Assembly: GCA_963920765.1 (NCBI GenBank)
Contig: OY987248.1
Location: forward strand, 13,922,539 to 13,986,538
DNA from: Ulota crispa
Taxonomy: Eukaryota; Streptophyta; Bryopsida; Orthotrichales; Orthotrichaceae
Direction of reading: 5' to 3'
DNA: 64,000 nucleotides
In this document: piece after piece, positions 5,531 to 61,916 of the stretch
Numbering within the stretch: the first letter of the stretch is position 1
Layout: each line of letters begins with the position of its first letter
The notes under the pieces: model-generated
The model's database searches: none
Seen by the model: only the letters and a program-made list of their open reading frames with translations
What the model was told of the DNA's origin: nothing
Translations under genes and position numbers: made by a program

Positions 5531-5783
5531 GCTTGATGCTTTTATTTCCTAGTGTCCTACACTGAATATTGCGTTTAGGTTGCCCAGACTAATTTCTTGA
5601 CATTTTACACTATATAAATACTTACTGCTGCCACATTAATTTTCATATAAATTTACTGTAATTTTTTTTACCTTTAAGAGCGGATGTGGGTCACCGTGGG
5701 TACTCGGGGTCCTGTGTATACCCAAGAACAATTTTTGTCTCCGTCGACACTTAAGGGCTAAAGGACTTGACAATAGCAATTAA

Positions 5784-6718
5784 CCCTTAAAGGTTTTTGA
5801 CTATGTTTTCATTAAAACTGTCCCAAAGCTGCCATTTGTAGTGCAAGTATCAAATTTTTAATGAAAGTTATTTTTAGACACATCTAACAAAAAGATCTGG
5901 TAATACACTAGTATCCAAAGATGTGGAAAAAAATTCAGAAATTTCTGCCATGTGGATTGTTAGGTGATTGAGTTTGAATTGACAAAAAGTCGTTTTTCAT
6001 CCCTGCAAAAATCCGGGCAACTGCACTTCACAAGGTCCTATTTGTATGAAAAAAGTTTCAAAATGGTTGTAATTTTTTGTATTCATTCTTCAAGGCAAGT
6101 CAGGTACACACTTGAAAATTTTCAAATCATTTGGAAATGTATAACACATATGAAAAAAATAGTAAGTAAAAAGAAGTAGAGAATGATACAAAACACTAAA
6201 TTGTTAAGAATTTAATTATGAAAAACAAAAATTCCAATCCCAATGGTTGAAATGTTGCAATAAACAATCTACATACTTTGGCTTTATTTCTTTTCCAAAG
6301 TATTAAAAATTGAGTAAAACATAGGACTTAAAAGTTTTTTTAGAGTAGGGAATCCACAATTGCCAACAAATAGAATCTCCTCATAACTTTCATCTCATTG
6401 ATGAAAATTGAATGATTCAAAGCTTCCCGAGGATATACATATATCTAAAGAACTAATTTCAAAAAACAAAATTCAAAAAATGTAATTTTTAAAGAAGTTT
6501 TTTGAGCTGCCCAAGCTACCCCCGAACAAAGAAAACTACATATCATGCAATAACTTTTGAACCATGAAGTCCAAAGTTATGAAATTTATTGGACCTTAAA
6601 GCTACTCCTTGGACACATCATGTGTGAAAATTTCAAAGAAAAAAAATGAAAATTTCATTTATAGTGGGCTGCCCAAAATTGCTATGTTGCCAAAAAACAC
6701 TATTTGGGCCTTTAGGGG
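5784..6718. mobile_element. TTAA-flanked MITE, subfamily A (935 bp)
   Basis: Left end CCCTTAAAGG is preceded by TTAA at 5780-5783; right end GGCCTTTAGGGG is followed by TTAA at 6719-6722. The interior shares with the elements at 9.6, 17.6, 53.8 and 61 kb a block reading approximately CTTTCATCTCATTGATG then GAATGATTCAAAGCT, and a GGGCTGCCC word near the right end. No coding sequence is seen. Confidence 0.75.
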
Positions 6719-6722
6719 TTAA

Positions 6723-8803
6723 GCTTTGGAAAATAAATGTATGTCGTCCAAGTCATAAACAATATGAAATCTAAATATCTAGAGATTTGCATGCATCTCC
6801 AAATGGCTAAGTGATGCATGACATGGATAATTTACCAGAATAAGGCAATCTAATTGTGAAGGCAACCTAAATGCAATTTTCAGTGTAAGGGCCATTTTCA
6901 TTGCATAAAGCTGAAAGTTGGGTCTTCCCTTACTTTTTTTTTTGGATGACGTGGCAAGCAAACAAGTGCCACGTCAAGAATATGGGCTGCCTTTAGTTCC
7001 TAAAACTAGGCTCACAAATTAGGTTTAGAAGGTTGGATCGGATTTAGAAACTTGGATTTACGAGAAATGAGTTTCTGGATGTAAAGAGTTGAATTTATTA
7101 AAGTCTCTAAAGTAGGGTTTGGTTTTTGGAGCTAGAGCTATGTAAGATAGTTTGATAAAAACTTAATCAATATGGGTGTGTAATGACTGGGGACATCATA
7201 GTATTGATTGTCATTGATTTTGTACTTTTAAAATACCATGGGTTAGGGTGGTGTCATAGTGATGTCACCTCAATCAATGGCCTAGTTTTTTCTTTTTATC
7301 TAAAAGAATGAACAATCTTTGTAGGAGATGTTCCTTGAGTTTGAGACATGATATTCTTGCACCTCAAACTAATAGATTAAAAAAAATATTGAAAAGACAA
7401 CCTCCAAATTTGGGGGCTAAGTGATATCAAGACTTACAATGACAACAAGATGAATTTTCCTTATTTTTTACGTGTTTGTATTGCATTTTATTTTTCATTT
7501 CTTTTTTCATTTTCTTTAAAATCATGTGTATATGGAAAAACCTTTTGCTTATACAAGTTGCATGAATGTAGATTTTGTGAATTCTATTTCATTTGTTTCT
7601 TGTAGGGAGGCATTTGGATTGAAATTGGATTCCTCCTTTTGTGCCTTTTGTAATTGTCACAAGCCTTTAACATTGGTGAATAGTTGGAAACTTAATTTGG
7701 AAACATACTCCCAACATCAAAAAGCATGTTTGCTATTCAATTTTGTTAAGAACAAACATGAATGCAATGTACCAAAATGACTAATTTTAATGTACCAAAA
7801 ACAGTTGTCAAAAAAATGTGTAGTTCTCAACGAGTTCCAATAATTCTACTGGTTTTAAAGGTCTATTGATCCATCAATGTTTTTATATTTTTACTTTTGA
7901 TACTATTGTGTTTAGATTTATAATGAAGGAACTACATAGTGGTAGCTATGGAAACAGTAGGATTAGGCAATAGTTTATTTTTTTGTGAATAATAAAGTAA
8001 AATTCTATCATGATTTTTATTGTTTCAAGATTAGGAGGCTTTGAAATGTGATTTTAAAATTTAAACCTTCAATTCTCAAAACTTCCTTCTAGATATAAAT
8101 AAGCCAACATCTAACATTCTAATTTTCTTCATCAAGAAAGTGATGAAAGTAAACAATTCCATCAATTGTCTCTATCTTTAGGTTGCTTGATGTAACTATT
8201 TCCTTTGTTTTGTAGTTTTATATAAAGGAATGAAATATTGCAAAATGATAATTCATGAAAAATTTATAATTTTACAACAATCATAGACAACATCAACATA
8301 AATTCTATATAAGCTCAATTATGTCAAATATGAGTGGCTATTAGGAAAATGGATTCCTGTATGTTTTGCATGTTATAAAAGTTTGTGTAACTTCCAAATT
8401 CAAATGAACACATAAATAAATTTGCCACGTATTAATAAATATGAAGTAGCAAGGCATTGAATTATTATTTTTAAATTCAAAATGGCAAGAACATTTTGAA
8501 TAAGGGTAGGTTTATAAAAGGCTCATATCAAATTTTAAAAAGATAAATGCTTAACTATAGATGCATGCATTGTTTCTCTAACTTATACCACTCAAATTTT
8601 CATACAAAACCACCACAAATTTACATACTTGTGCTAAACAGGTGGTTAGTTTTTGGTGGCTTTAGAAAATTGAAATAATTGTACTGTACAAAAGCTAACG
8701 TTTAGTTGCACATGGGTGGTTTATAATTAATTTTATGTTTTATTCTCATGTAGTACTCTAGAAACATTACAGAACTTTTCATTGCAATAAATATAAAAGG
8801 GCT
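6723..8803. other. AT-rich intergenic DNA
   Basis: Only short, low-complexity open frames are present (for example 7526-7780 plus, 84 codons, no recognisable domain). I see no gene or bounded element here. Confidence 0.5.
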
Positions 8804-9204
8804 TTGATATTTGTACCACACCTTCTTGACTATCCCACCACATCATGGGGTAAATTTTTAAATCTCTACCATCAAAAAGTTGAATTTGAGAATTTGGAAT
8901 TCAAATTTGGACTTAGAGACATAAATTTTGTTTAGAACCATAAAAATATGTTGTAATTGAACAACACCCAATGAAAAAGCTTAACTTGGGAGAAAAGTAT
9001 AACTTTTACTTTTGTTTATAAAAAGATAAGCTTTTCCATTGGGTGTTGTTCAATTAGAACTTTTTTTTGTGATTCTAGAGAAAATCACCGTCTCTGAGTC
9101 CAAATCTAAATTCCAAATTCTCAAATTCAAATCTTTGATGGTAGAAATCTAAGATTTACTTGGGGTGTGATGGGATAGTCAAGAAAGTGTGGTACGCATA
9201 TCAA
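8804..9204. mobile_element. Palindromic MITE (about 400 bp)
   Basis: The left end reads TTGATATTTGTACCACACC and the right end is its inverted copy with a few changes. The inner arms also pair: ACTATCCCACCACA with TGTGATGGGATAGT, and GAACAACACCCAATG with CATTGGGTGTTGTTC. The whole unit is one near-complete hairpin with its centre near 9000. The target duplication is unclear. Confidence 0.7.
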
Positions 9205-9575
9205 TTCCCAATATAAAAACATACAAATTAAATTATTTTACAACTCCAAAATATTGATGTAACAAGCAAATTCGTCTTAAGAAATTTTGACTGTCCATTA
9301 ACTTTGAAATTCCCCATTGGGTAACTCTACCAATCATGTGTTTTCTAGCATTTTTAAGAAAATGAGGATCCCATCACAACAGCTGCAGCCACCAGCACTG
9401 GTTCTGAGCCAGAGGTTCCTTGTCACAAGCAATGTTCCCAAATGCGATGGGTGGCTCAAAATTAATCTTAAATATGACTAGATTTTCAAATTTAATACTA
9501 TGCTTACAGTTTATTTATTTACTCGTTTCAAATCCTGTCGTGCACACTAATCTTGAACCCCATTTTTGCATCAAA
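9205..9575. other. AT-rich spacer, nothing recognised
   Basis: No gene or repeat boundary is visible between the palindromic MITE and the next foldback element. Confidence 0.4.
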
Positions 9576-10297
9576 CCCCTAAAGGACTGACTGTCCGGTG
9601 GGGGGACAAATGGGATTTCGGGCACATATCTATGGTTAAATTATTTTGTGTGATTTTTTGAAACTTTTATGGAAGATGGGGAATTCAAAGATCTGTATGC
9701 TCATCTATTTATTTTTTTGCATTTTGACATTTTTGAAGAAGTAAAAAATCAATTTCTGATTTTTTTGGAGATGGGGCAGTCCAAGCAACCCAAATTTTTT
9801 TTTACAATTTACATTTTTAAAAAATAAATAATCTGAAATTGGTTCTTTGAGTTTACATATACTTGCAAAGCTTTGAATTACTCATTTCCAATAAATGAGA
9901 TGAAAGTTATGAGGACTTTTAGTTAACTAGTAGATGTGGCTCTATATCTATGAGTTAACTAAAAGTCCTCATAACTTTCATCTCATTTATTGGAAATGAG
10001 TAATTCAAAGCTTTGCAAGTATATGTAAACTCAAAGGACCAATTTCAGATTTTTGTTTAAAAAAAATGTAAACTAAAAAAAAAAACTGGGTTGCCTGGAC
10101 TGCCCCATCTCCAAAAAAATCAGAAATTGATTTTTTACTTTTCAAAAATGTCAAAATGCAAAAAAAAAAAAGACATACAGATCTTTGAATTCCGTATCTT
10201 CTATAAAAATTTCAAAAAATTACACAAAATAGTTTAGACACAGATACATGCCCAAAATCCCATTTGTACCCTGAACGGACAGTCAGTCCTTTAGGGG
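9576..10297. mobile_element. TTAA-family MITE, subfamily A, long hairpin with CAAA duplication
   Basis: 722 bp. The ends are CCCCTAAAGGACTGACTG and its exact inverse, then CGGGC...TGTGTG type inner sequence, and the pairing continues to a centre near 9940 (AGTTAACTAGTAG against CTATGAGTTAACT). Flanks are CAAA at 9572-9575 and CAAA at 10298-10301, a perfect 4-bp direct repeat unlike the TTAA of the relatives. The interior carries the subfamily A block ATAACTTTCATCTCATTTAT on both arms. Confidence 0.8.
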
Positions 10298-10301
10298 CAA
10301 A

Positions 10302-11984: not shown

Positions 11985-12124
11985 CACTACAAGAAAATTG
12001 TCCAAATTGACACATCTAAAATGACTAAATGTGTTGGAAATGACAAAACAATGTCTGCACCAACCAAAAAAAAGTCCAAATCAACATTTCCAAATGACAA
12101 AAAATGTCCAAATCTCTTATAGTG
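11985..12124. mobile_element. CACTA-type mini-element (140 bp)
   Basis: The left end CACTACAAGAAAA matches the canonical CACTA (En/Spm) terminus and the right end CTTATAGTG is its imperfect inverse. TGTCCAAAT/TGACA words recur inside, as in subterminal repeats. Flanking triplets are ACA and ATA, one mismatch from a 3-bp duplication. It is far too short to encode a transposase. Confidence 0.75.
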
Positions 12125-13026
12125 ATAATTAAATGTGGCATTCTTCTTGAATGTTTGATGTATTGTGTTGTTGCTTTTATCCATCTTTGACTAAATATGA
12201 ATATGTATTTTGAGACCATGTTGTATAAACACTATAATTTGTCAACTCACATACCAGATTCCATTTTCGTTTTTCTGATTAGATGCAAAATTCTAATAGT
12301 CACAAGCCTTCTTCAAGACCAATGTCCGAATTGTTAAGCGATTTTACTCAATAGGCCAACGACCACTCTCCCGAACCATATTTTGGTTCGGTGGTCTCCA
12401 AAGGGATAATTTGGCACCTTTCAACATCTGTAAATGTGGCCAAGTGCAGGACAATGTAGTCAATCCTTCAGTACTTGAGAGGAGAATTGGCAGAATGTGT
12501 CTGTGCCATTGCCACAGTTCCAAGCATTCAGTGCAAAGCTCAGGAGCCTTGGACATTCATTACAAAATATTATAAATATATTACAAAAATAATTCAGGGT
12601 TGGAACCACAGACTGACAGCAACTTTGCGCAATTTGCTACTTTTAGAAATCTACGACCTCCTAAGGTAGGTGGCTTGAATTCCATTAGGGCACTAAAATC
12701 GCTCATTTTCCCAACTGAACTATGTCGATACATGTCTTTATTCATAACCTTTCAGAAATGTAAAGTGTATGTACATTTGAGGAGGTAGACGGTTTTAGAG
12801 CCTTATGACATTTTCATTTCAAAATTTTATAACTAATTCCACATTACTCTGAAAAATACAAAATAACTTGAGTTAGATGCTAATTCCTCTTGTCTTTCAA
12901 GGAAAATTTATTGAAAAATATTTCAAGAAGTTTTGCCTCCCCAAAATTTAGTTTCAAACCTTAGATGGTTGGTTCATGAGCCTCTTACCTTAAGCTTACG
13001 TTGGCATACCTTGATACAATCTCTAA
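12125..13026. other. AT-rich intergenic DNA
   Basis: Several 60-70 codon frames near 12344-12788 overlap on both strands without a recognisable domain. Nothing else is supported. Confidence 0.45.
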
Positions 13027-14000
13027 CCCCTAAATGCCCAAGGCACCAAATTTTGGTGTCCAATATTTTTAGGAAATTTTGAAATCTTGATGAAGATACA
13101 AATTTGATTGTTACAAGGTTTTTGTATTTGGAAAAGTTGCGGGTTGAAGTTAGCTTCAACATTTAATATGAATTTTCTCCTTATCTTATTCTAATTGTTT
13201 TTGGTGGAAGGGAAACAACAAGCATACATTTTGTATCATGAATAGTGTTGCAAAGCCTATGACAAGTCGCCACATGGAAAAGACGGGCACCAAGTTAAGA
13301 AAAAAGTGAAGATTTTCTTTGGACACTCCTTTGGACAATATGGCCCTTTTAGTGAAATTTTATCATCTAACAAAATCCAAAAGTGTTTTTAGATTGATTT
13401 CAATTGGAATATTTTTGTTATAGAAGTTGAAATTCAAACACTATTGAACTTTCTTTCATTCATAATGATTTTTGGTCAATAATTGAAGTTACAAAATTTA
13501 ATATATTTGGCGATTGCCCTTTGACAATTGCATTGTAAGCTCATTTGTGAAAATATGGTCATGAATTTGGAAGGGGGCCATTAATTTTCAAGTAATAACA
13601 ATAAACACTAAAATATCCTAAGTGGTTGCTTCCCAATTTTGTATCCAAAAGTTGCCAATTTGCACTAGAAGTTTTGGGCGGCTCCAAAAAAGCAAAAAGT
13701 TCCATACTCATCCACATTCAATCACAAATATCTTAAAATCCATGTGACCATTTTGATTTTTTTTGGGTAGTGCTATCTAGAAGCCTTGAAGTTCAATATT
13801 CAATAGTTACAATTTTGTTTTGATGTTTCATAATGATTTTAGAGCATCTCTTGCCACCCACCAAATGAAGCCCCTAAAAATTAGGGTTGGAAGGGATAAG
13901 AGCAACAAGTAACGCAATAAAAAGTGAAGTTCCCCTGCCAACCAGAAGGTTTGCAAGCCGGCTTGCACTTGCAAGGAAAATACGCTTGAGCATTTAGGAG
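13027..14000. mobile_element. TTAA-family MITE, subfamily B (974 bp)
   Basis: Left end CCCCTAAATGCCCAAGGCACC is preceded by CTAA (13023-13026); right end GCATTTAGGAG is followed by TTAA (14001-14004). The interior matches the element at 56.9-57.5 kb over about 13120-13300, including AAGACGGGCACCAAGTT and the preceding TTGTTTTTGGTG region. One end has lost one of the four G bases, so this copy looks old. Confidence 0.6.
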
Positions 14001-14004
14001 TTAA

Positions 14005-14884: not shown

Positions 14885-15442
14885 TATCCTTGTGTTCCTT
14901 TATCCTCATGTCCCCTATCCTTATGTCCCCTATCTACGTGCCCCCTATTCCCATGCCCTCCTATTCCCGTGCCCCTTATTCCCGTGCCCTCCTATTCCCG
15001 TGCCCCCTATTCCCGTGCCCCCTATTCCCGTGCCCCCTATTCCCGTGCCCTCCTATTCCCGTGCCCCCTATTCCCGTGCCCCCTATTCCCGTGCCTTCCT
15101 ATTCCCGTGCCCCCTATCCTTATGCCCCCTATCTCCGTGCGCCCTATCCCCTTGTCCCCTACCCCTACCCTTGTGCCCCTTATCCCCATGCCCCCTATCC
15201 CTATGCCCCTTTATCCCCATGCCCCCTATCCCGGTGCCCCTTATCTCGGTGCCCCTATCCCGGTGCTCCCCTATCCCCTGTTCCCGTGCCCCTATCTCCA
15301 TGCCCCCTATCCACGTGCCCCCTATCCTCGTGCCCCCTATCCTCGTGCCCCCTATCCTCGTGCCCCCTATCCTCGTGCCCCCTATCCTCGTGCCCCCTAT
15401 CCTCGTGCCCCCTATCCTCGTGCCCCCTATCCCTGTGCCCTC
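14885..15442. repeat. 15-bp minisatellite, C-rich on the plus strand
   Basis: About 37 units of 15 bp related to CCCCCTATTCCCGTG. The first third is dominated by that form, the middle is mixed with indels, and the last part has seven identical copies of CCCCCTATCCTCGTG in a row (about 15316-15422). Because 15 is a multiple of three, all frames on both strands stay open, which explains the 186-196 codon Pro/Cys-rich frames here; I do not treat them as genes. The minus strand repeats GGG and GGGGG runs, a pattern able to form G-quadruplexes. Confidence 0.95.
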
Positions 15443-17640: not shown

Positions 17641-17644
17641 GTAA

Positions 17645-18059
17645 CCCCTAAAGGCCCATTGTCCCTTCAAGGGACAAATGGAATTTTGGGCATGTACTCT
17701 TGAAATCACACCTACTTGCAAACTAAAACTTCTCATAACTTTCATCTCATTTATCAAAATTGAATGATTCAAAGCTCCCCACATCTATATAAGTCTAAAG
17801 AACCTATTTCAGATTTTTATTTGAAAAAAATGCAATTTTTAAAGAAGATTTTGGGCTGCCCAGAGTCCCCTGTTTTTCAATTATTCATTTTTAACTTCTT
17901 TAATAAATGTTGGAATGAAGAAAAAGTTACATTCCCAAGTAGATTTTTGAATTCCTCACCTTCAATAAAAGTTTCAGAAAATCTTGCAAAGTAGTTTAGC
18001 CATAGGTACATGCCCAAAATTCCGTTTACCCCCCAAAAGAGCCCTTGGGCCTTTAGGGG
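17645..18059. mobile_element. TTAA-family MITE, subfamily A (415 bp)
   Basis: Left end CCCCTAAAGGCCCA and right end TGGGCCTTTAGGGG are preceded by GTAA (17641-17644) and followed by TTAA (18060-18063). Inverted pairing extends about 60 bp inward, including GGAATTTTGGGCATGTAC. The interior carries the shared ACTTTCATCTCATTTAT and GGGCTGCCC blocks. This is the clearest member of the subfamily. Confidence 0.85.
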
Positions 18060-18063
18060 TTAA

Positions 18064-19475: not shown

Positions 19476-19479
19476 TTAA

Positions 19480-19706
19480 CCCTTAAATAACTATGGAGCA
19501 TAGTATATAAATTGACATATAATTGTCATTTGCTACCAATAAATTTTCTTTAATTTGTGATCTCAAGTAGCTCATTAGAACTGCATTGATCTATTCTCCA
19601 ACTTCTTTGTTGGTCTCAAATGTAGTAGAGGTGTGGATCCATTCCAAATACAAGAAAAATACCTCATATTGTATTAGTTGCAAAGGGCATTCCCATCGTT
19701 TAAGGG
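19480..19706. mobile_element. TTAA-flanked short MITE, subfamily C copy 1 (227 bp)
   Basis: CCCTTAAATAACT at the left and CGTTTAAGGG at the right are flanked by TTAA at 19476-19479 and 19707-19710. The interior is closely similar to copy 2 at 41433-41652, including CTATTCTCCAACTTCTTT and GTAGAGGTGTGGATCCATT, and to copy 3 at 37498-37729 in the opposite orientation. Confidence 0.85.
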
Positions 19707-20100
19707 TTAAATATTTAGATATACGTTTATCCTTGCCCTTTACTTCTATAATGACATATATAGACTAGAGTTAAACCTAATGTAATCTACTACCTTGTTT
19801 TATGACAACTATCCAAATTCGAATTGATTAGTAAGACATGTAATGCAAACAACTTTAAAAAGACTAATCCTAAATGTTACATCCACTTCATTGGCAATTC
19901 AATAGAAAATAGCACTATTTCTAGTTTCCTCTAGAGTACCTCTTAAATGATATATATCAATGGTTGAAAAATATTGAATTCCACTTTAAAAGGAAACTTT
20001 GCATCATGTACCACCTACATACATTTCAGTTTCTTTATGTACATTTCTAGTTTTGTGTGCAAACATTTGAATACCTTGATAATGGGTTTGTTCACCTTAA

Positions 20101-20804
20101 CCCCTGAATGCCCCAGAGGACCAAAAGTGTTCTCACATGATTTAAAAAACTTGTTTGAGGCACTAGATCTAATTTGTTGATCTTGCTATAAACTATAACC
20201 ATGAAAGCATTCAAGTGGTTCATGCAAGTGGAATAATGGCAAGGCAAGGCAAATATTGTACAAGTTAAGTGCTTCAAGAGCATTGATTGGGTGAAACATC
20301 ATATGGGGCGTGGTAACAAGCAACATCTTATAAGTTACAATTAGTCAGTACTTCTAGCAAGCAAGGGCATGTGCTTTGTGGTAATGGGAAATTTGCCAAC
20401 CGGCCATTTTTTTTATGCAACAACACTTTGAAGCCCTAAAACTTAACATAAGAAAAAGTATAATCTTTGATAATTTGCAAGTGTGTGCGTTCACATCAAA
20501 TCTTGCTACTCACAAAAATTGAGATGAATCAGGGGCTTTTAAAATTTTGTAAAAATCATTAAATAGCAACTATCTACCACAAAATGAGATTATGTCATCA
20601 CTTGTTGTTTGACCAAATATTAAAATCTCCCATCTCTTAGGATTAATTGTTCCCAAAATTTGCAAGCTATTTTCTAAATAGGTGTTCCACTATTTTCAAT
20701 AATCACTTTTTGCTGAGCATCAGATTGATTAAGATAAAATGCATCAAAGTTGGAGGTCTCCCAAAACCCTTAATTTTGGTGAATATGGCCTGGTCGTTTA
20801 AAAG
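20101..20804. mobile_element. TTAA-flanked MITE, diverged (704 bp)
   Basis: Left end CCCCTGAATGCCCCAGAGG follows TTAA (20097-20100); the right end CCTGGTCGTTTAAAAG precedes TTAA (20805-20808). The right terminus has diverged from TTTAAGGG, so the pairing is tentative. Confidence 0.45.
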
Positions 20805-20925
20805 TTAAAACAATCCTACAACCAACAATCACGGTCCGAACCAAACCCCAAAAAATTCTTAAATTAGGACTCAAATTCAACAAATTAAACAATGCATACC
20901 GTCCAACGCTCCACATCACCAAACA

Positions 20926-23976: not shown

Positions 23977-26900
23977 ATGGCGGCGCCTTCTCCAGCAGGG
24001 GGGGTCACGCCGACCCCCGCTGTGGACGCACCTCTACCAGCAACAGAGCCGCCTGTTGCATCGCCACCACCATCGGAGACACCACCACCGGTGGCGTCGC
24101 CACCACCCGCTTATGCAACGCCGCCAGCGCCTGTGAATGCTCCACCACCGGCTCTGGCGCCTCCGCCCGCGGTGGAGTCCCCTCCTCCAGTGGAGTCGCC
24201 TCCTCCGCCTGTGCTGGTTGCACCTGACGTGAGTCCTCCTGCTCCTGACGCTCCCCCGCCGTCCGTTACGACTCCCCCTGCTCCAGCTCCAGTGGATTCT
24301 TCTCCGCCACCAGTCGCAACGCCACCACCGGCTCCAGCAAGTCCACCTCCTGTGGAATCCCCGCCTCCATCACCTGCTGCGGATGCTCCACCTCCGACGA
24401 TCGTTGCAACTCCGCCTGCTCCTGCTCCTGTGGATTCATCACCGCCACCAGTGGCAACGTCACCACCACCGGCATCGCCACCACCAGCGGCAACGCCACC
24501 ACCGGATTCAGCAAGCCCACCTCCAGTGGAATCCCCGCCTCCACCACCTCCCGTGGACGCTCCTCCTCCTGCGGACTCAACGCCACCGGCGCCAGAGGCG
24601 TCACCACCGCCTCCTGTTATCTTATATCCTCCTCCTCCTCCAGGCACCCGGAGCCCTGCTCCTGCTGCGACTCTAAGCCCCCCTCCGCCACCAGCTACTT
24701 CATCTAAATCGTCCAGCAGCGGGCTTAGCACGGGAATAGTAGCTGGAATTGCAGGTGTGGGAGGCTTGATGGCGCTGGTTCTTTTATTCGGCATCATTGC
24801 TTTCTGTAGAAGGAAAAAGAACAAAAGGAAGAATGTACTTCCGTATGCAGGCGGTGGTGGTGGTAGTGGAGGAGGAGGAGGAGGTCACACTGGCTATGGA
24901 GCATCAGCATATAAAGTAGGTGGGATGGGCGATCCCAAAGGCTACTCAGGCGGGGGTGCTGGAGGCGTGCCTTTGCCTCCTGAAGGAACCTCTAGTGTGG
25001 GAAGTTCAAGGTCCTGGTTCACGTACGAGGAGCTGCATGCTGCCACGAACGGGTTCGCCATGAAGAACGTGCTGGGCGAGGGCGGCTTTGGACGCGTTTA
25101 CAAGGGTGAGCTTCCCAATGGCCAGGTGGTGGCCGTGAAGCAGCTCACACTGGGTGGGGGTCAAGGCGATCGTGAGTTCCGAGCTGAGGTTGAGATTATT
25201 AGCCGCGTCCATCACCGGCACTTGGTGTCTCTTGTGGGCTATTGCATTGCTGATAAGCAGCGGCTGCTTGTGTACGACTTCGTTCCCAACGGCACCCTGG
25301 ACGTCAATCTCTACGGTGAGTGAACCTTGCTCTTCTCACTTCTCTCTCAATGCCCCCATATCTGGAAACCAGCAAATTCCAATTTTTCCCACATGTGCAT
25401 TCCCTTGTACAGTGCATGACACTTATAATTAACAACTCTTATTTCGAGTGGCCGTCAATAAAAAAAAGTTATCAAAAATTTGAGACCACCAAGATGACGC
25501 TTAGGATTTGCCCCACTTGGTGGTAGAAATACTTTTGAGCTAATGAGTACATGTGTTGTGCTTTAGTATTTCTTGTTGGGACAATAAGTGTTGGTTATAG
25601 GTGTCATGCACTATAGTAACGGTGCTTGTGTGTAAAAATCAGGGAAAGGAAAGCCAGTCATGACTTGGGAAATGAGAGTGCGTGTTGCATTGGGAGCTGC
25701 TCGGGGGTTGGCGTACCTTCACGAGGATTGTCATCCTCGCATAATCCACCGAGACATCAAGTCTTCCAACATTCTTCTAGATGACAAATACGAGGCTCAG
25801 GTTGGTGGCAATTGGCATTATTGAGTCTTTATTGAGTTTCACCTCGTTTTTGTCTTTTGTGGACCCCCTTGTTGGTTTTTGTTTTTTTTAAGGATGAGTG
25901 ATTGACTATTTTGGTCTGCTGCTGCAGGTTGCTGATTTTGGCCTGGCGAAGCTGGCGTCGGACACAAACACCCATGTTTCAACTCGAGTAATGGGGACCT
26001 TCGGATACCTGGCGCCAGAGTACGCTCAGAGCGGCAAACTGACGGAGAAATCCGACGTATATTCTTTTGGCGTGGTGTTGTTGGAGCTCATCACCGGGCG
26101 CAAACCCATTGACCAGAGAAACCCTGTCGGGCAAGAGAGCCTGGTGGAGTGGACACGGCCGTTGATCAACTACGCGTTGGACGATGGCGATGTCGACGAG
26201 CTCATCGATCCTGGCTTGGACGGCGACTATGATCCTCGAGAAGCGTTGAAAATCCTCGAAGTCGCTGCGTCTTGTGTCCGCCATACTGCCTCCAAGCGCC
26301 CCAAGATGGGACAGGTGCGTGCGGCATCCCTCTCTTCCTCATATAGTTGCTAAATCTCTATGAATAAATTCAAACTTCACCAACAAAAGTAAACACAACA
26401 TACTCTGCGAACACGGAGTACAAGGGTAGAATGTCAAGTAATCTAGCGTGAGTTGGGTATTCATGTTGTCAGAACTCGAGAAATGGATTCTGCATGAGAG
26501 TTTTGACGAGAGCGAACATGAGGACAAGAGTAGAGTGTTGCACAGCCAAAGATCTCAACCCTAAAATCCCCAAGACTCCAAATTCTGATGGTTTTACACT
26601 AGAATTTGATACCATGAGCATGTAGGGTCAAAGGGAGTATTATGGTTTTTACAGTAGAATTTGATACCATGGGCATTTAGGGGTTAAAGGGAGTATTTAT
26701 ATGGTCATTGGGTCTGATGATGTTGAAATCTTGGACCACCAGGTGGTACGAGCGTTGGAAAGCGAAGACATCAACAACACCCAGCAAGGGCTGAGACCGG
26801 GGCACAGCTCGGAGCACGACTCGGAGTTCGACAATTACGGAGGGGACTACGACACGCAAGCATACAACGCAGACATGAAGCGATCGAGAAAGGCAGGGAC

Positions 26901-37876: not shown

Positions 37877-37914
37877 GTTAACAAGAGTTGGCTAATTTGA
37901 TTAGTTTGGTTTAA

Positions 37915-38564
37915 ACCTTGAGCGCCCCAACGCCTGAAATATGGCGCTCAAAATTTGAATTCAATTGTTGTGTTATCAGATGGAGTGATTTAGGGGAATT
38001 GAAGGTACACATGGTACGAGGAGTGGGGATTAGATGAAAGGGAGTGGTGTTTTGTGGCTTTGACTGTTGTATGTTGTGTCAGACTCAATTCAATGATGAA
38101 AAAAGTGGTTCAGGAGCAGTTCTGGGCAAATGAGGAGACCCCACCCATATGGGGTTCCTGGTGGTTGATTTTGGTTTGTCTGTTTTTGTAGTCAGATTTG
38201 GTATTATGAATCTTGTCAAAAAAACTTGAAAATTGGAAAGTAGTGAGTATACCCATTGTGGAACCTTGGCTCAAAATTTGGTTGCATAATTCCATCACCT
38301 AAACCCTAAATCAATGGATACCACTGCTAGACATACAAAAATTTGGACCCTAACCTAAATGTCAACCACCCTTTGACCATTATAATATCAGAAATGGTAT
38401 GGTTAAATTGCCCTAAATTTGAGAAGGATCTTGAGATTCAAGGTAACAACTACTTTCAAAGGCTCATACACATGGATTGTATTTTTGCATATGCCACAAG
38501 CTATTCAATCCCAGGTGGTCTCTTAGACCTGCACTAGAACAATTCTGAGCTAGGCGCTTAGGGG
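37915..38564. mobile_element. TTAA-flanked MITE, diverged left end (650 bp)
   Basis: The right end GGCGCTTAGGGG is followed by TTAA (38565-38568). The left end ACCTTGAGCGCCCCAACGC follows TTAA (37911-37914), matching the right end except at a few positions. Pairing is plausible but not certain. Confidence 0.5.
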
Positions 38565-38568
38565 TTAA

Positions 38569-41428: not shown

Positions 41429-41432
41429 TTAA

Positions 41433-41652
41433 CCCTTAAACTACCACAGGGCATAGTATATACACTGATGTATAATTGTCATTTGCTACTAACAAGAAAT
41501 TTGAACTTGGGATGTCAAGTAGCTCACTAGAATTGCATTGATCTATTCTCCAACTTCTTTATTGGTCTCAAATATAGTAGAGGTGTGGATCCATTACACG
41601 AAAAATATCCCGTATTGTACTGGTCGCAAAGGGCCTTTCGGTCGTTTAAGAG
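41433..41652. mobile_element. TTAA-flanked short MITE, subfamily C copy 2 (220 bp)
   Basis: Left end CCCTTAAACTACC follows TTAA (41429-41432); the right end TCGTTTAAGAG is followed by TTAG (41653-41656), one base off. The interior is closely similar to copy 1 at 19480-19706. Confidence 0.8.
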
Positions 41653-41736
41653 TTAGTAATCTTAACGAGAGAGATAAAAATAAAAATAAATAAAAATAAA
41701 AAACTAAATAATAGTGTTCTCAGAAGATTTTATTAA

Positions 41737-42381
41737 CCCCTAAATGCACAAGGCCTTTCTGAACTTCTTAGCATTTTCAGGAAAGTGAACAATCAACCAA
41801 CCTCTTCATAAATCTCATCAAGTTTTTTTAAACTATAACTGTACAAATTTAAACTTGACTTGTTAGAGATTTCATGGAAAAAGAAAACACAACAATATCA
41901 CTTATAGTTTGAAAGATTAGAATGTTTGAACATGAGGGTGTTAACATTGCAAAAGTGACTAGAAGTTTTCTAATCCTCATTTCACATGTCAAATCTAAAA
42001 AGTTGGTCATCAAAAAAATATGAGGTTTAAGGTCATTACATGTTTAACCTCAACCAATTTATGGCTTTCAAAATCTACTCATTTGTGTTTTTTAAATGGA
42101 TTTCTAATGCGGATTTTTCTCCAAGCTCTAGTGTATTTGAGGCTCATTTTCAAGATCTTCCAATAGTAGAAAACTCAAGATTGCAATGGACACCCTTGTA
42201 CAAAATCTTGAATAGAAAAATCATGAACATTCATTTTCAAAATCAGATTTTTGATGTTGAAAATAGACTTCAAAATAAACTTGTGTTCAAAAGAAAATAC
42301 CAAAAATAGTGATTTGATTAGATTTTATTTGTCTTCAAAGTTTTGCAAACACCCAAATTGGGTCCCTTGGGCATTTAGGGG
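41737..42381. mobile_element. TTAA-flanked MITE, subfamily D (645 bp)
   Basis: CCCCTAAATGCACAAGG and CCCTTGGGCATTTAGGGG are inverted ends flanked by perfect TTAA (41733-41736, 42382-42385). Inside is an 89-codon frame (42040-42309) that lines up with a frame at 40968-41267 in a diverged copy. No known domain is recognised. Confidence 0.8.
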
Positions 42382-42609
42382 TTAAACTACAACGTCTAGT
42401 CAAGTTCCAGAGCTTGAATGGGGAATGTACAGGTCAATGACATACATTATACCTACTTTTGAATTCTAGTTATGCACAAACCATGCAAATTGAGCTCGCT
42501 CAAGTAAATCCTAAACTATCCTCCTGTCACGTCGACACTGATCACCAAATGGATACTTTGCTCCGAGATGCAGAAATGAAAGTGATGGAGAAGCCGTAAA
42601 ATTAAATGA

Positions 42610-44943: not shown

Positions 44944-45537
44944 GACATCACACCTGTTACAACCGCACACCTCCACCTCGCACTTCATTGCTGCGCCCGA
45001 TCTTGATTTCAAGAAATTGACAATATGCAGCAATTCTTTTATAATATTTCTACAGCTGAACACTGTTCATCACAGCAAACAAGAAAGAACTATGCTTAAA
45101 TCGCGCCGCAGCTTCTGCTGTATGTTGGACATTCACAGCGAGCTTCAGCAACAAGTGCAAACCCTTCTCTCAATCACGCACTCCTCTGTTTCTTGTTTCT
45201 ATGGCTGACTGTTGTGCGACAGAGACCAGAGATTCAACAAGAAGAAACTAAATCGCGCCGCAACTTCTGCTGTATGTATGTAGGACGTCACAGCGAGCTT
45301 CAGCTGCAACATGTGCAAATCGTTCTCTCGATCAATCACTTACGCACTACTCTGTTTCTTGTTTCGAAGGCTGATTTTTGTGCAACAGATACAGGAGATT
45401 CAGAGCGAAAAGCATGCAAGTGCAAATTGTTCTCTCGATCAATTTCTAACGCACTACTCTATTTCTTGTTTCTATGGCTGACTGTTGTGCGACAGAGACA
45501 GCAGCCCGGTGTGTCTATATCATCACGTTGTAAATAA
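44944..45537 (-). promoter_or_regulatory. PPO upstream region with three tandem repeat units
   Basis: Upstream of the PPO start (minus strand). Units start at AAATCGCGCCGCA (about 45098) and AAATCGCGCCGCA (about 45249), period near 151 bp, with a third, 5'-truncated unit at about 45411-45507. All share TTCTCTC/GATCAAT and CACTACTCT-TTTCTTGTTT stretches and end GTTGTGCGACAGAGA or a close variant. The array begins about 155 bp from the ATG. The role is inferred from position. Confidence 0.6.
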
Positions 45538-53780: not shown

Positions 53781-53784
53781 TTAA

Positions 53785-54706
53785 CCCCTAAAATTCTTTT
53801 GTGTTTAGAGACCCAAAACTGCTTCAGAATACTAGTCCCCAAATCACGGTCAAAATCTTCATTGAAACTTATTTTTTAACAAATCCAACCGTAGGATCCT
53901 TTGGTTGACTTGCACAAGTACATTGTCCCAAAATTCAGAATGAATATTCCCACCAATTGCAAGATCAATGTGCTTAAACTTCAAAATGTAAGTTTTTCTA
54001 GTCCTTCCAAAAGGTGAAGTTTTGATTTTCAAACTTTTTAGAAAAAAACACATATGTTGTATTTCTTGTGCAATTTTTGCAATATGTTGGAAAATGGGTT
54101 GAAAGCATATATAAAAAAATTTAACCCAAAAAAAAATTGGATTCATTTTTACAAAAATTGTAAAGTGAAAGGTATTGATGAATAAAAGATATAACTAATA
54201 TGCTAATAAGTTTTGGAAGAATTTGAAAATTGTTAATCCCAATGGTGAGAATGCTCTAACAGACAATTAGTAACTTTAATTTTCATTTTCATTTCTAATT
54301 TTTCAAAATTGAGAGTAAAAGATAACTTTATGTGTCTTTTCTACCCTCTTCCTACCTTCATTGCGTGCAAAAGAAAACTCCTTGTAACTCTTACCTCATT
54401 ATTTGGAATTGAGTGATTTAGTTTCTTTGAGTAGGTATCAATCTATACATTTCTATAAAAAAAAAATTAGAAGATTTAAAAAAAAATTAGAACTTATTTT
54501 TTGCTACCCGGTTTGACATTGAAATTGAAAAAACCTTATAACTTTTGCAATGCTTATCCAAATGACATGAAATAAAGCTCCACATGTAAATTATGATGAG
54601 TAGCATCCATCCTAAAAATTTCATGAAAAAATTCCAAATTATGGAATCAATAGAGCCTCCCCAAGTTCTCATAAAGCCCAAAGTGGGTTCCTTGGGCCTT
54701 TAGGGG
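53785..54706. mobile_element. TTAA-flanked MITE, subfamily A (922 bp)
   Basis: Left end CCCCTAAAATTC follows TTAA (53781-53784); right end TTGGGCCTTTAGGGG precedes TTAA (54707-54710). The interior has a diverged form of the shared subfamily A block (CTTACCTCATTATTTGGAAT near 54390). No transposase is seen. Confidence 0.7.
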
Positions 54707-54710
54707 TTAA

Positions 54711-55278: not shown

Positions 55279-55286
55279 CTGTAAAG

Positions 55287-56336: not shown

Positions 56337-56362
56337 CTGTAAAGGCCTCTAGGGAATTGCTA

Positions 56363-56831: not shown

Positions 56832-56904
56832 AACCCAAATATTGGCAAAGATTTCTACTTTTGGGCCTACAAAGAGGAGGTCCCAATTGACTGAGCCCTC
56901 TTAA

Positions 56905-57536
56905 CCCCTAATGCTCAACGCACCATATTTTGGTGTTTAAACCTTAAGCGCTAGGGTAAAACCATGCCTACATGGGACCTGTGTATCAATAGGGACGAAA
57001 ATCGTCTCTATGGTCCTTTAGGGGTTAATAAACTTCAAGAAACTTTGAAACCTAGTTGAAGGTTCAAATTTGATATTTTAAAGGTTCTTAAAAAAAAATT
57101 GGAGACCTTGCCGATTGAAGTTAGCTTCAGCATTCAATTTTAGTATCCTCCATTCCTTATTCCAATTGTTTTTGGTGAAAGTTAAATTACAAGCATACTT
57201 TTGTGTCATGAATGCTGTCATAGAGCTTATGACAAGTTGCTACATTGAAAAGACGGGCACCAAGTTGAAAACAAAACAGGCCTCTTTAATTTACATTTTG
57301 TCATAAATTAACAAATTAGCCAAATTCATGTACATTGTGAAAGTTAATTTGTGTTTTGTCATAATTTAGCAAACTTATTTTTTATATGGGCATAGTTGAT
57401 ATCATGTTAATGTGACCATGTTAAGGAATATGTTAACCATGCCATCACAAAAGTTGCACAGTGATTGCCATGTGGCATATGCCAAGTGTCATTTTATGGG
57501 TAACCAGTGGGATTAACTTGTGCACATTTTTAAGGG
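56905..57536. mobile_element. TTAA-flanked MITE, subfamily B, with nested insertion
   Basis: Left end CCCCTAATGCTCAACGCACC follows TTAA (56901-56904); right end TTTTTAAGGG precedes TTAA (57537-57540). The interior from about 57110 to 57270 matches the 13-kb element (AAGACGGGCACCAAGTT). A second, 84-bp TTAA element lies within it. Confidence 0.65.
56941..57024. mobile_element. Nested 84-bp TTAA-flanked mini-element
   Basis: Left end ACCTTAAGCGCTAGGG follows TTAA (56937-56940); right end GGTCCTTTAGGGG precedes TTAA (57025-57028). The related 13-kb element runs continuously across the corresponding point, which supports a separate insertion. One terminus has diverged. Confidence 0.5.
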
Positions 57537-57854
57537 TTAACTTATTGATTTGTGCATTTATTTTTAGAAAACATAAATTGTAGAGGCCTAGAATAGAGTC
57601 AAGATTTCCCTGAGGCACTCCTCAAGATTTCCCTAAGGCACTCCTCTTTGCTTCAAGTTTAACTTACTCAATTGACTTAGAGAACTTCTAGTGTTAACCC
57701 CTAAGCACCACGCCAGTCACTGTTACTACCCCTTTATAGTAGCTTTGTAATAATGTATAGTAGTGTGGCAAGTGCCCACATATCACATAATAATGATGTT
57801 TCAAAAAATTGCAAATGTAAATAGTGCACGTTGCCCTCATAAAAATTGCAAGAA

Positions 57855-58612
57855 AGATGTATCCCTTCTTCGAATTCACAGTACGGCAAGGTTACCAAAT
57901 AAACCTCCTCCAAATCCACAACACACCGACAACATCACGCATCCTCCAAGACTTTGGCCACAACAAGAAATCCCAGACAAAATACTATAAATTTCTCTGG
58001 CACAAATCCAGACCCAGCAAGATAGCGGCTTTTCTCTGGACGGTGGTGAACAAGGGCTTGGCAACAAGAGCATGGCTAACCCAAATAGGTATGCACAACG
58101 CCCCCCTCTGTGAAATGTGCAGGGAAGGACAGATCGAAACTACAGGACATCTTTTTTGGAGCTGCGCTTTCGCCAAAGAAGCATAGAGAAGATATCACCT
58201 CACTGCAACAGGACACGGAGGACCACAATACAAGACCTGGGAAGAAGCACTTCTAGGACGATTCAAAGTGCCAATAACGAAAACACGCCAGTTTGTCTAC
58301 AGGCACCACCCCTGGGACATGCTACGGAGCTTTATCATCTGGTACATATGGACCGACCGATGCAAAGCGCGCTTCAGCGAAGAACCAGCAGCAATCGATC
58401 AAGCCCTCAGGAGGGCGTGGACCTCCACAATTCACACAGGTCACGCAGCCTGGAGAGCAATACATCAGCACCGACATGATGAAGACACCCTGTGCATGCT
58501 GGAAACAGCATTCTACACCGCATGGATTACCAAACCACCTATATTTTGTATAGACGAGGGTAACTCCACGATCTGGTTTCACACCCCACCACTGACCCTA
58601 ACATCAACATAG
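57855..58612 (+). pseudogene. LINE reverse-transcriptase C-terminal region (zf-RVT), one in-frame stop
   Basis: An open frame interrupted only by TAG at 58184-58186. Before it: FLWHKSRPSKIAAFLWTVVN, then GLATRAWLTQIGM, then LCEMC and GHLFWSCAFAKEA, the C-x2-C and H-x4-C pattern of the zf-RVT domain that follows the reverse transcriptase in plant LINEs. After it the same frame continues through WEEALLGRF and FIIWYIWTDRCKARF to 58612. The stop replaces the Trp usual at that position, consistent with a single G-to-A change. The polymerase and endonuclease are missing, so the copy is non-functional. Confidence 0.8.
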
Positions 58613-59309
58613 AAACAACCATCTCCTCCCCCAGCACGATGGCATCAAGCAGAAGGGAGGCACAACCTGCATCCGGAGAACAGGTAAATTCTAACCCTAC
58701 AGGAACCAAGAAGACCCCTCGCGACAGAAACCGCAGCAGCATATATCGAAGGGAGCACCCGAGGGCGAGGAGATCCGGCCAGCCCGCGCCCGAACAGATG
58801 CAGCACCAGAGGATGAACACGACCACAACAGGAAGGAGACCAAGCCGAAGCAAACCACAAGAAGAGCAACGACTGGCAAGCATCACCCGCAGGACACGAG
58901 AAAAACTGAAGAGGAAGAAAAAGCAAGGCAGCGAAGAGTAAGGAGCACACCAACGACTGCAGGACCAGCTGAAGACGACAAAAGCGACAGCTAAGACATG
59001 CAGCGTGACAGCTAAGACACGCAGCAGAAGGGACAGCCAAGCCAACAGAAGCAAATGAAGAATAATCCCAGAATAATCTAGGGCGCTGCTCTCATAGCAC
59101 AGCACTCTTCCAGCCTTCCTAGTTCTTACCTCAGCAGCACATGCACCCGGTTTTTGTCCCATCTTAGGGTTTCCAGATACTTTCTTTTTCTTGATAGGTT
59201 TTTTTTTTTTTTTTTTTTTTTCCACACTCATTTACTCTTTCACACCATATTACTACTACCACTGACGTCTTGGGACGATCCCGGTTTTTCCCCCCACAGG
59301 GACTTTTTC
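57855..59309 (+). mobile_element. 5'-truncated LINE with 17-bp target duplication
   Basis: The insertion lies between two copies of CATAAAAATTGCAAGAA (57838-57854 and 59310-59326). It contains only the 3' end of a non-LTR retrotransposon, the usual outcome of incomplete target-primed reverse transcription. GC content and codon use differ sharply from the AT-rich host element. The end holds a poly-T run (59199-59221) and then GGTTTTTCCCCCCACAGGGA, but no poly-A tail, which is unusual for an L1-type element. A basic 100-codon frame at 58639-58941 is unrecognised. Confidence 0.85.
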
Positions 59310-59503
59310 CATAAAAATTGCAAGAAGGGTAATAAGGGACCTAACTTTGTATCCATAAATCTTCTCACAAATTAGGTTACCCAAAAATATGAGTGAACTT
59401 GGTGAGCTTGATTTTTACCTTTCAAGATGAACCATGTATTTATGATCTCTTTTGAATAAAATAAAATGAAAAACAACTTTTCCATCTTGTAAGTTATTTT
59501 TTT

Positions 59504-59824
59504 AGGAAACATTACAAAGATACCCTTGATATATTTGTATAGATAACCTAGTTTTTTCAAAATTGCACAAATGCCCTTGGACCATAAAGTTCAGGCGTTT
59601 GCTTTGTTGCTCATGCCACTTCCTTCTTCCTTTATGCCCCTGTTCCTTCTTTTTTGTTCAATTGCACTCCCTTCTTTAACATTGGTCATGAAAAAAGTTA
59701 CATGTACAACAGATAAATACCTACTAATTATGGTCCAAAGGTATATGTGCAATATTTGAAAAACCAAGGGTCTTATGCCTATGCAAATATCACAAACTTT
59801 AAGGGCCTCCATCAAATTTTCCCT
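59504..59824. mobile_element. Foldback MITE copy 2 (321 bp)
   Basis: Same structure and size as the copy in the TAF8 intron: outer AGGAAAC/TTTTCCCT ends, inner ATACCCTT and CCTTGGACC...GGTCCAAAGG arms, and a centre rich in CTTCCTTC. It is more diverged than copy 1 and is inserted in the 57.7-kb TTAA element. Confidence 0.65.
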
Positions 59825-59866
59825 TATAGTTCTCTACAGCATTTGAGAGTTAATCGAGAGAATTAA

Positions 59867-60680
59867 CCCTTAAACGCCGAACTAGTCATTGCGACCAACT
59901 TAGCTACAATGTTCTACAATGTTATTTAGTGCTACCATTGGTGTCACAAGTGCCCTGGAAGCTACAAATGTCAATAATACATGCTGACCTCATAAAATTT
60001 GCAAAAAGGGCAGCAAGGAACCTAAGACAGTGCATGTAAAGTTTCTCACAATTTGGATTACTTAAAAATATGAGTAAAGTAGGAACACCCATAAGCGTTA
60101 GTTTAAGGGTTTTGAACATGATGACTATTAATAAACATCTAACAAATTATAGGATCCTATTAGCAACAAAAAAAATAATGAGTTTGCACTTATGAATGTA
60201 TTATTTGGATACTGTGAGAATAAGTTGTGACTTTTTAAAGAGCAAATTGCCATTGCACCCATAACCAACACTAAAGTTTCATATCCACAGGTTGTAAATT
60301 CTTGTAATTACATCATTATCTACTTCCAATATTTTAGAGGTGACGGTTATGGGAACACTAATGCTTATGGGTGTTCCTACCTTATACTTTGTGAAGTTGT
60401 TTGTTGCCTTCCATAATGCACCATACATGTATGATCACTTGCAAATAAAACTCATATGGAAAACAGCTATTTTTTGACTTGTAGGGTATTTTTTTCTTCT
60501 GCCCAACAAAGAAAAAGCGTTTGTCTTGTTGTTTGACCCCTGAACAACCAAAGGGCTTCAAATTTGCTGCAATGATAGTACAACTAAGAGCATCATCAAT
60601 GTGTACACTAGGAAAGAGACGGGCTTGCATTTTGCTTGGTGGAAGCCACTTTAGCAAGAAGTTTAGGGTCTTTTAGGGTT
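59867..60680. mobile_element. TTAA-family element, right end unresolved
   Basis: Left end CCCTTAAACGCCGAACTAG follows TTAA (59863-59866). The interior to about 60075 matches the 57.7-kb element and resumes after the TA-type MITE at 60382, with AAAACAGCTATTTTTTGACTTGT against AAAACAACTTTTCCATCTTGT. A candidate right end is TTTTAGGG followed by TTCC at about 60672-60683, which is not TTAA, so the boundary is open. Confidence 0.4.
60077..60382. mobile_element. TA-flanked MITE family (AGGTAGCAACACC), copy 2
   Basis: Ends AAGTAGGAACACCCATAAGC and ATGCTTATGGGTGTTCCTACC, flanked by TA (60075-60076, 60383-60384). It matches copy 1 at 30322-30633 throughout and is inserted into the 59.9-kb TTAA-family element. 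Confidence 0.75.
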
Positions 60681-60960
60681 CCAACGTCGCCACCGGAATG
60701 GAAACGCCAAACTTGACCCCGTTAAAACCACCTCCTTGAGCGGCATATTGTCTCATTTTCCCATGCCCCAGCTTGTTTTCCCAGTGTGCACTGCATTTGC
60801 TGACGGAGTGACACATTGCTTGTGATAACTTATAACAGCTTGCAATTTCCTAGCAACAACTTGCAAGTACTTGCATTCTTTTGTTACTGTGCTTGAATTT
60901 GCTGCGGAAGTTGTGTCAACATTGCAAGGAGCCGGCCATTGAAAGAAATTGCATACTTAA

Positions 60961-61912
60961 CCCCTAAAAGGACCAAGCCCTTTTTTCTTTGAAAATCACT
61001 GAAAATTGCCACTTTTGGAAGAATGAGTAGAAAGGTAGGAAAAAAGGTTTTTTTGAAAATTTAACTACAAGATCTTGCCCTAGACTATGGGAGGTACTTT
61101 TGGGAAAAAAAATCAGCTCATTCAAATTGTAGAGGAGTGAGATATTGACACCTGAAGTGAAAACAAAAGTTTTTTTCCTTGCTGCCCAAAAATTTCAGAA
61201 GCCTTTGACAGCTCTTATATCAAAAAAATTGCTTTACGCAAAGTTGAGGTTTATTTTTCCCATGTAGAAGACCAAGTTAGGTAAATGTGGGAGAATTTTC
61301 AAATGAAACGGAGGTGTGGATTATACTTTGTAAAATCCTGCAATGCCGTAAGGTCATGAAATTTGCATATACAATAGGCAAAATTGGAGGATTTATGTAA
61401 AATTGAGAAATGTGAATTACTTTTATCCGAATAACAAAAACCAAGGAATCTTGGTCTACTACAACTTGGAGAAAAAGGAAGTAAAAAAACAAATACACAA
61501 AGAGCTCAAAAAAGTAAAGCAACAAGTTTTACAAGGGGGAAAAGGAATAGAGGTTTGGGAGTCCCATACCTACCCGCAAACTAAAACTTCTCATAACTTT
61601 CATCTCATCTATTAGAATTGAATGATTCAAAGATGTCCACTTATATAAAATCTAAAGAATCAATTTCTGATTTTTATTTTAAAAAATTACAATTGTGAAA
61701 TTTTTTTGGGCTGCCTGCCCTCGCCTTTTTTCAAAAATTCATGCATAACTTCTTCAATAAATGTCAGAATGAAGAAAAAATTAGATGCCCACATAGATTT
61801 TTGAATTGCCCACCTTCAATAAAAGTTTCAAAAAATCCCAAAAAGTAAATTAGCCATAGGTACATGCCCGAAATTCCATTTGTCCCCCAAAGGGACAATG
61901 TGCCTTTAAGGA
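60961..61912. mobile_element. TTAA-flanked MITE, subfamily A (952 bp)
   Basis: Left end CCCCTAAAAGGACC follows TTAA (60957-60960); right end TGCCTTTAAGGA precedes TTAA (61913-61916). Near the right end are CATAACTTTCATCTCATCTA, GGGCTGCC and GGTACATGCCCGAAATTCCA, all shared with the 17.6-kb element. Confidence 0.75.
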
Positions 61913-61916
61913 TTAA

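What the first reader, a model, noticed from the sequence alone, without database searches (positions are those of the whole stretch)
5780..61916. A large family of small elements flanked by TTAA, with CCC(C)TAAA ends: piggyBac-like MITEs in a plant?
About fifteen elements in 64 kb start CCC(C)T(T)AAA and end with the inverse. Eleven have TTAA at both sides (5780/6719, 19476/19707, 20097/20805, 37494/37730, 37911/38565, 41733/42382, 53781/54707, 56901/57537, 56937/57025, 57694/59850, 60957/61913), though at least five of these pairings rest on a diverged end. Three differ by one base on one side; one has CAAA on both. TTAA targeting with CCC-starting ends is the piggyBac pattern. As I recall, piggyBac is poorly represented in land plants; Sola3 and Kolobok also use TTAA. 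No transposase lies in this window, so an autonomous partner must be elsewhere or lost.
Basis: partly seen in the sequence, partly recalled or inferred. Interest (0 to 1): 0.82.

Follow-up and report, generated by a model that had tools for sequence, protein, structure and literature searches.

The report
piggyBac-type miniature transposons in a moss
The window is full of short jumping-gene remnants that insert at TTAA, and the same genome, probably a moss, carries many copies of a piggyBac-type transposase, a kind known mainly from animals, some of which sit between ends of the same type.

Summary
The word TTAACCCCTAAA occurs 30,972 times against 77 for a reversed control. Of 11,430 ends with the longer word CCCCTAAAGGMCCA, 9,689 (84.8%) follow TTAA directly. 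Five window elements were searched with 100-base flanks: 165 of the 195 top other copies (39 per search, 85-94% identity) start and stop within 5 bases of the predicted boundaries. A paralogous empty site has one TTAA where the filled site has two. The piggyBac guess is supported. The genome has 120 scored matches to the piggyBac transposase family, from 528 first-look candidates. Five of seven transposase loci examined have CCC(C/T)T-type ends on both sides, four of them with TTAA on both. One matches a 916-930 bp non-autonomous family at both ends. A chalcone synthase gene suggests a moss (plus recall). My open-access literature searches found no described piggyBac family in a land plant. 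New member of a known kind, in an unexpected host.

The parts
5780..6722 (.). non-autonomous element, 943 bp including TTAA on both sides
   Evidence: ends; 36 of 39 top other copies (89-93%) keep both boundaries within 5 bases; 7030 first-look candidates
9572..10301 (.). 730-bp near-palindromic (foldback) element flanked by CAAA on both sides, a 4-base non-TTAA duplication
   Evidence: self-inverted 89% over 730 bp
13023..14004 (.). non-autonomous element, CTAA on the left and TTAA on the right
   Evidence: both ends score over 19 bits; no copy search done
17641..18063 (.). 423-bp element of the foldback family, GTAA on the left and TTAA on the right
   Evidence: two stretches match at 89-91% an element lying beside the J30 transposase element
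19476..19710 (.). member of the ~235-bp family
   Evidence: clusters with 37494 and 41429; no copy search of its own
20097..20808 (.). old non-autonomous element, 712 bp; boundaries less certain
   Evidence: of 39 other top matches, 4 cover both boundaries within 5 bases, at 73-76%
26676..26687 (-). lone element end TTAACCCCTAAA
   Evidence: score 28.6; only a weak left partner at 26555, 11.4 bits
37494..37733 (.). member of the ~235-bp family, TTAA on both sides
   Evidence: 30 of 39 top other copies (89-93%) keep both boundaries within 5 bases; 3348 first-look candidates
37911..38568 (.). non-autonomous element with GAGCGCC-type left end
   Evidence: first 35 bp match at 83% an end abutting transposase element J39, whose own end reads CCCCTGAGCGCCCC; no copy search
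41429..41656 (.). third member of the ~235-bp family
41733..42385 (.). 653-bp non-autonomous element, TTAA on both sides
   Evidence: 35 of 39 top other copies (91-94%) keep both boundaries within 5 bases; 4703 first-look candidates
53781..54710 (.). 930-bp non-autonomous element, TTAA on both sides
   Evidence: 37 of 39 top other copies (91-93%) keep both boundaries within 5 bases; 1243 first-look candidates
   Evidence: copies cover about 57017-57276, 57276-57416 and 57413-57590 separately, with short matches at 56898-56941
57694..57705 (+). lone left-type end; the pairing with 59850 is not supported
   Evidence: no scored copy covers the left part of 57594-59953
59863..59874 (+). lone left-type end TTAACCCTTAAA
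   Evidence: score 23.9
60957..61916 (.). 960-bp non-autonomous element, TTAA on both sides
   Evidence: 27 of 39 top other copies (85-92%) keep both boundaries within 5 bases; 9366 first-look candidates; left end similar in pieces to the end 3' of transposase C7:11819342

Best explanation
[quoted passage not shown] Shown: short elements in which no transposase was found, many families, first-look candidates in the thousands, shared ends TTAA-CCC(C/T)T, a 4-base TTAA target duplication, and a large set of mostly broken piggyBac-type transposase genes, five of seven examined lying inside longer elements (5.0-7.5 kb) with ends of the same kind. Inferred: a piggyBac-type transposase bound these ends, cut the elements out and inserted them at TTAA, moving the short elements in trans. 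Also inferred: the short elements arose by internal deletion of longer ones and by foldback duplication, and the main bursts are over.
For: TTAA before 9,689 of 11,430 CCCCTAAAGGMCCA ends genome-wide, reversed control 0. Empty site with a single TTAA. Both boundaries kept within 5 bases in 165 of 195 top copies of five window elements. PF13843: 120 scored matches, best 254.5 bits, 528 first-look candidates of which 116 were scored, 0 of 14 control genomes. Three transposase pieces match the solved piggyBac (6x67) and piggyBat (9c0f) transposases at E 2.6e-24 to 1.2e-11; three Asp that I recall as the catalytic ones in 6x67 align with Asp in L031 and L047. Both ends found at 5 of 7 transposase loci, with ends of one element more alike than ends of different elements (2 of 120 permutations as high, the true one included). 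J31 matches the E0/E19 short family at its left end (3140-3194 at 80%, 3140-3297 at 69%) and right end (8164-8640 at 68%), in the right orientation. C-terminal Cys-rich motif in J31 and, by eye, in L047.
Against: J31, the one with the direct link, has ATAA and ATGG at its sides, not TTAA. No left end was found for J42 and J44. About 1.9 kb in the middle of J39, with most of its transposase domain, was not fetched. Element ends are so dense that an end near a transposase is weak evidence alone: 8 of 10 three-prime flanks had a right-facing one, 2 had none. The full-length parent of the window families was not found; the 60957 link is about 250 bp in pieces and could be a nested fragment. A second empty-site comparison (E6, 70% identity) shows CTTG instead of TTAA, and one of two E7 sites in L023 shows TTAT. 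30 of 195 top copies miss a boundary by more than 5 bases. The Cys-rich pattern was found in 1 of 6 loci. L029 has Asn where the third Asp should be.
Confidence: 0.9

Rival explanations
1. The short elements belong to another TTAA-targeting superfamily (Kolobok or Sola3) and the piggyBac genes are unrelated co-residents.
For: The parent of the window families was not found.
Against: Transposase-bearing piggyBac elements have the same kind of ends, and one shares both ends with a short family. Kolobok and Sola3 genes were not searched for.
Confidence: 0.06
2. They are Stowaway-type (Tc1/mariner, TA duplication) or Tourist-type (PIF/Harbinger, 3-base TTA/TAA duplication) MITEs whose ends happen to extend the site to TTAA.
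For: These are the common plant MITEs (recalled), and TTAA contains TA, TTA and TAA.
Against: All four bases are fixed at similar levels and position -5 is not. The E7 empty sites in L020 and one of two in L023 show a single complete TTAA. The CAAA/CAAA element is a 4-base duplication.
Confidence: 0.02
3. The ends are chance or telomere-like CCCTAAA words in an AT-rich genome.
For: CCCTAAA is the usual plant telomere unit (recalled), and many CCCTAAA words in the window are not element ends.
Against: Genome-wide excess of about 400-fold over the reversed control, and repeated copy boundaries.
Confidence: 0.01

Closest known systems
piggyBac (Trichoplusia ni) and piggyBat (Myotis) elements, superfamily piggyBac
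   Same: DDE_Tnp_1_7 transposase in this genome's long elements, aligned Asp positions, TTAA target, CCC-starting ends (the ends of the animal elements are recalled)
   Different: Probable moss host; elements of 5.0-7.5 kb with long flanks and an apparently split coding region, where T. ni piggyBac is 2472 bp (PMC10803768, start of abstract in the listing); diverged copies in one genome (32-50% pairwise identity)
piggyBac-like MITEs of animals; the coral MITEs of PMC2872659 (search listing only) are a likely case
   Same: Short elements without transposase; that the coral ones are piggyBac-like with TTAA I take from the term counts of the listing, not from reading
   Different: Plant host; several families of hundreds of bases with 1243-9366 first-look candidates per query; some are ~730-bp palindromes
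Tc1-like PpTc1/PpTc2 elements of Physcomitrella (PMC4054914, passages read)
   Same: A DNA transposon type better known from animals and fungi turning up in a moss
   Different: Different superfamily (TA duplication, DD34E) and different ends

Membership tests
piggyBac superfamily | TTAA target site, duplicated on insertion | tested here: met
   84.8% TTAA genome-wide; empty site with one TTAA; exceptions told under evidence against
piggyBac superfamily | terminal inverted repeats starting CCC | tested here: met
   short elements and five transposase elements
piggyBac superfamily | DDE_Tnp_1_7 transposase in elements with these ends | tested here: met
   120 scored matches; both ends found at 5 of 7 loci. 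None found in the window elements.
piggyBac superfamily | catalytic Asp triad | tested here: met
   L031 and L047 align Asp with three Asp of 6x67, recalled as the catalytic ones; L029 has Asn at the third
piggyBac superfamily | C-terminal cysteine-rich domain | tested here: inconclusive
   found by pattern in 1 of 6 loci, seen by eye in L047
piggyBac superfamily | seamless excision restoring TTAA | not testable with these tools
   needs an excision assay or sister strains
MITE | short, no coding region, high copy | tested here: met
   230-960 bp; first-look candidates 1243-9366 per query; no transposase in the window
MITE | ends shared with an autonomous element | tested here: inconclusive
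   met for family E0/E19, outside the window, with J31; for the window families only short or piecewise similarity
Stowaway or Tourist MITE | 2- or 3-base duplication (TA, TTA/TAA) | tested here: not met
   four fixed bases, empty site
Kolobok or Sola3 | their own transposases | not tested
   no search made

The most novel reading that the evidence does not exclude
Mosses host an old, diversified, resident lineage of piggyBac transposons, with many families persisting side by side and non-autonomous derivatives making up roughly a tenth of this genome. The superfamily would then be a major and overlooked builder of some land-plant genomes.
Probability: 0.5. Interest if true: 0.75.

Novelty: new member of a known kind. 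Interest (0 to 1): 0.62.

Why it matters
A 2022 review of land-plant transposons counts six TIR superfamilies, and the word piggyBac has 0 occurrences in its main text (PMC9033089, passages and term counts). Here paired short elements cover 21,765 of 200,000 sampled bases (10.9%, rough), and the genome gives 120 scored piggyBac-type transposase matches. If it holds in other mosses, plant annotation may be missing a main component, and a piggyBac lineage living in plants would be open to study. Whether it came by horizontal transfer or long descent becomes testable.

Tried and rejected
In the empty-site test (5 candidate rows) the E24 row matches that element's own right flank and was not counted; the E6 row is told as an exception. 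The 2088-bp and 2054-bp pairs E24 and E42 are probably composites (another left end, 60957, lies inside E42); both stay in the 33 of 43 count, and E24 in the 10.9% estimate. An earlier count said 7 of 10 three-prime flanks have a right-facing end; recounted it is 8 of 10.

Led nowhere: no relative of the L031 transposase in viral contigs. No left end for J42 and J44. Rfam and tRNA scans of the window were empty. BogWitch, a name I recalled for a moss transposon, had 0 occurrences in the 12 papers listed of 354.

Literature, what I saw: PMC9033089, PMC10619864, PMC6890710, PMC7466625, PMC13120521, PMC4054914 and PMC9985172 as passages and term counts. PMC6890710 (the fern Ceratopteris) lists PiggyBac, 1230 copies, 122,417 bases, 0.00%, in a repeat table, so the label has been used in a land plant before. 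In PMC10619864 both occurrences are 'piggybacking'. All others only as search listings, of which at most 25 papers each were shown. The library holds open-licence papers only, so absence there is weak evidence. Repbase and subscription papers were not searched.
Full report
What was checked. The reported ends are at the stated places. The 12-base end TTAACCCCTAAA occurs 15,477 times forward and 15,495 times reverse, against 41 and 36 for the reversed control.

The target site. Looking only for CCCCTAAA in 264 kb, 37 of 50 sites are preceded by TTAA; all four bases are fixed to a similar degree and the next base out is not. Genome-wide, 9,689 of 11,430 CCCCTAAAGGMCCA sites follow TTAA. For one short element outside the window (E7, L012:6747-7674) the flanks, joined around a single TTAA, align across the junction with sites in L020 (79% over 399 bp, TTAA) and L023 (73% over 404 bp, TTAA; 87% over 190 bp, TTAT). 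A second comparison at 70% identity (E6 against L034) shows CTTG at the site. The element at 9572-10301 has CAAA on both sides as a direct repeat, a 4-base duplication at a non-TTAA site.

The elements. A weight matrix trained on near-TTAACCCCTAAA words gave 43 pairs in the 264 kb, 14 in the window; 33 of 43 have TTAA on both sides, a count partly circular because of the training. By similarity, 30 of the 43 fall into seven clusters of 2 to 7 members, among them ones with typical lengths of about 235, 653 and 925 bp. Paired elements cover 21,765 of the 200,000 bases of 20 loci taken at preset positions, 10 on C1, 7 on C7 and one each on C2, C3 and C4; this is a rough estimate that includes possible mispairings. 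Some are near-perfect palindromes: 9572-10301 (89% over 730 bp) and L020:2760-3494 (83% over 756 aligned positions), and two others lie in the stretches fetched around transposase genes.

Copies. Five window elements were searched with 100-base flanks as part of the query; 40 candidates were scored each time, one being the element itself. Both boundaries fall within 5 bases of prediction in 35 of 39 (41733), 30 of 39 (37494), 36 of 39 (5780), 27 of 39 (60957) and 37 of 39 (53781) top other copies. Searches list six further rows each, mostly partial second matches, at 72-89%. First-look candidates number 4703, 3348, 7030, 9366 and 1243, so copy numbers are not exact. The most similar scored copies are 92-94% identical in the five searches, so no very recent burst is visible there. 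Element 20097-20808 is older: its best full-length-type match is 77%, and of 39 other top matches 15 start and 14 end near its boundaries, 4 both. The pairings at 56901-57540 and 57694-59850 are not supported.

The transposase. PF13843, the piggyBac transposase family, has 120 scored matches (best E 1.3e-73) from 528 candidates of which 116 were scored; 10 of the 120 rows show no stop in the matched stretch. Three pieces match solved piggyBac and piggyBat transposases. The pieces compared are 32-50% identical to each other, which points to several old lineages. tblastn with seven pieces found no such gene in the window or the 20 loci. The longer reading frames upstream, which I take as possible first exons, matched no Pfam family.

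The link. I fetched upstream and downstream stretches of seven transposase loci. Five have ends on both sides: J29 6,607 bp, J30 5,027, J31 5,506, J32 7,495 and J39 6,996 (J39, its middle not fetched). Four have TTAA on both sides; J31 has ATAA and ATGG. J42 and J44 lack a recognised left end. Left and right ends of the same element resemble each other more than ends of different elements: summed score 30, reached by 2 of 120 permutations including the true one. J31 matches the short family E0/E19 at both ends in the right orientation. In ten three-prime flanks, three of them from J39, J42 and J44, 8 of 10 have a right-facing end, but the background density of ends makes this weak. Element 60957-61916 shares about 250 bp, in pieces, with the end beyond transposase C7:11819342, and 37911-38568 shares end sequence with the J39 neighbourhood.

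The host. A chalcone synthase reading frame scores 697 bits against PDB 6dx7, which I recall is from Physcomitrium (Physcomitrella), and two near-identical chains; the next different sequences score 551 and 525 bits. Contig sizes of 41.4, 37.0, 34.1, 25.7, 25.6, 22.9, 22.0 and 21.2 Mb for C1-C8 would fit a Hypnales moss with 11 chromosomes (chromosome number recalled), but the species is not identified.

Mechanism. Inferred from the superfamily (recalled biochemistry): the transposase binds the ends, excises the element through hairpin intermediates with TTAA overhangs, and inserts it at TTAA. Short elements without a gene are moved in trans. The shared ends and TTAA duplications are shown here; transposition itself is not.

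Verdict. The new parts are the host, the scale and the linked transposase genes. I call it a new member of a known kind, because ends, target site and transposase all fit piggyBac.

Noticed in passing
window 9572-10301; L020:2760-3494; J30 2029-2754 (in L034); J29 1254-2128 (in L033): Some elements are near-perfect palindromes of about 730-880 bp; transcripts of these would fold into long hairpins and could feed small-RNA pathways.
   Followed up: partly
L049:557-560; L018 near 8484; L043 near its right-hand end: Two elements stand back to back sharing one target site (TTAA in L049 and L018, TCAA/TTGA in L043), as if a second element had inserted into the target duplication of the first.
   Followed up: no
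window 14901-15440: Minisatellite, about 35 copies of a 15-base unit TATCCCCGTGCCCCC.
   Followed up: no
window 4308-5252 (-), 23977-25323 (+), 43882-45063 (-): Host genes: TAF8-like (Bromo_TP, TAF8_C), a proline-rich frame with the start of a kinase domain, and a tyrosinase/polyphenol oxidase.
   Followed up: partly
L047:5976-6596: Long tetranucleotide microsatellite (read as repeated TYIH) downstream of a piggyBac transposase reading frame.
   Followed up: no
C2:36765124-36766008 (+) and C2:36779670-36780554 (-); C7:18203169-18204302 (-) and C7:18223004-18224137 (+): Two pairs of transposase matches with identical scores in opposite orientation, about 14-20 kb apart, suggesting inverted duplications.
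   Followed up: no
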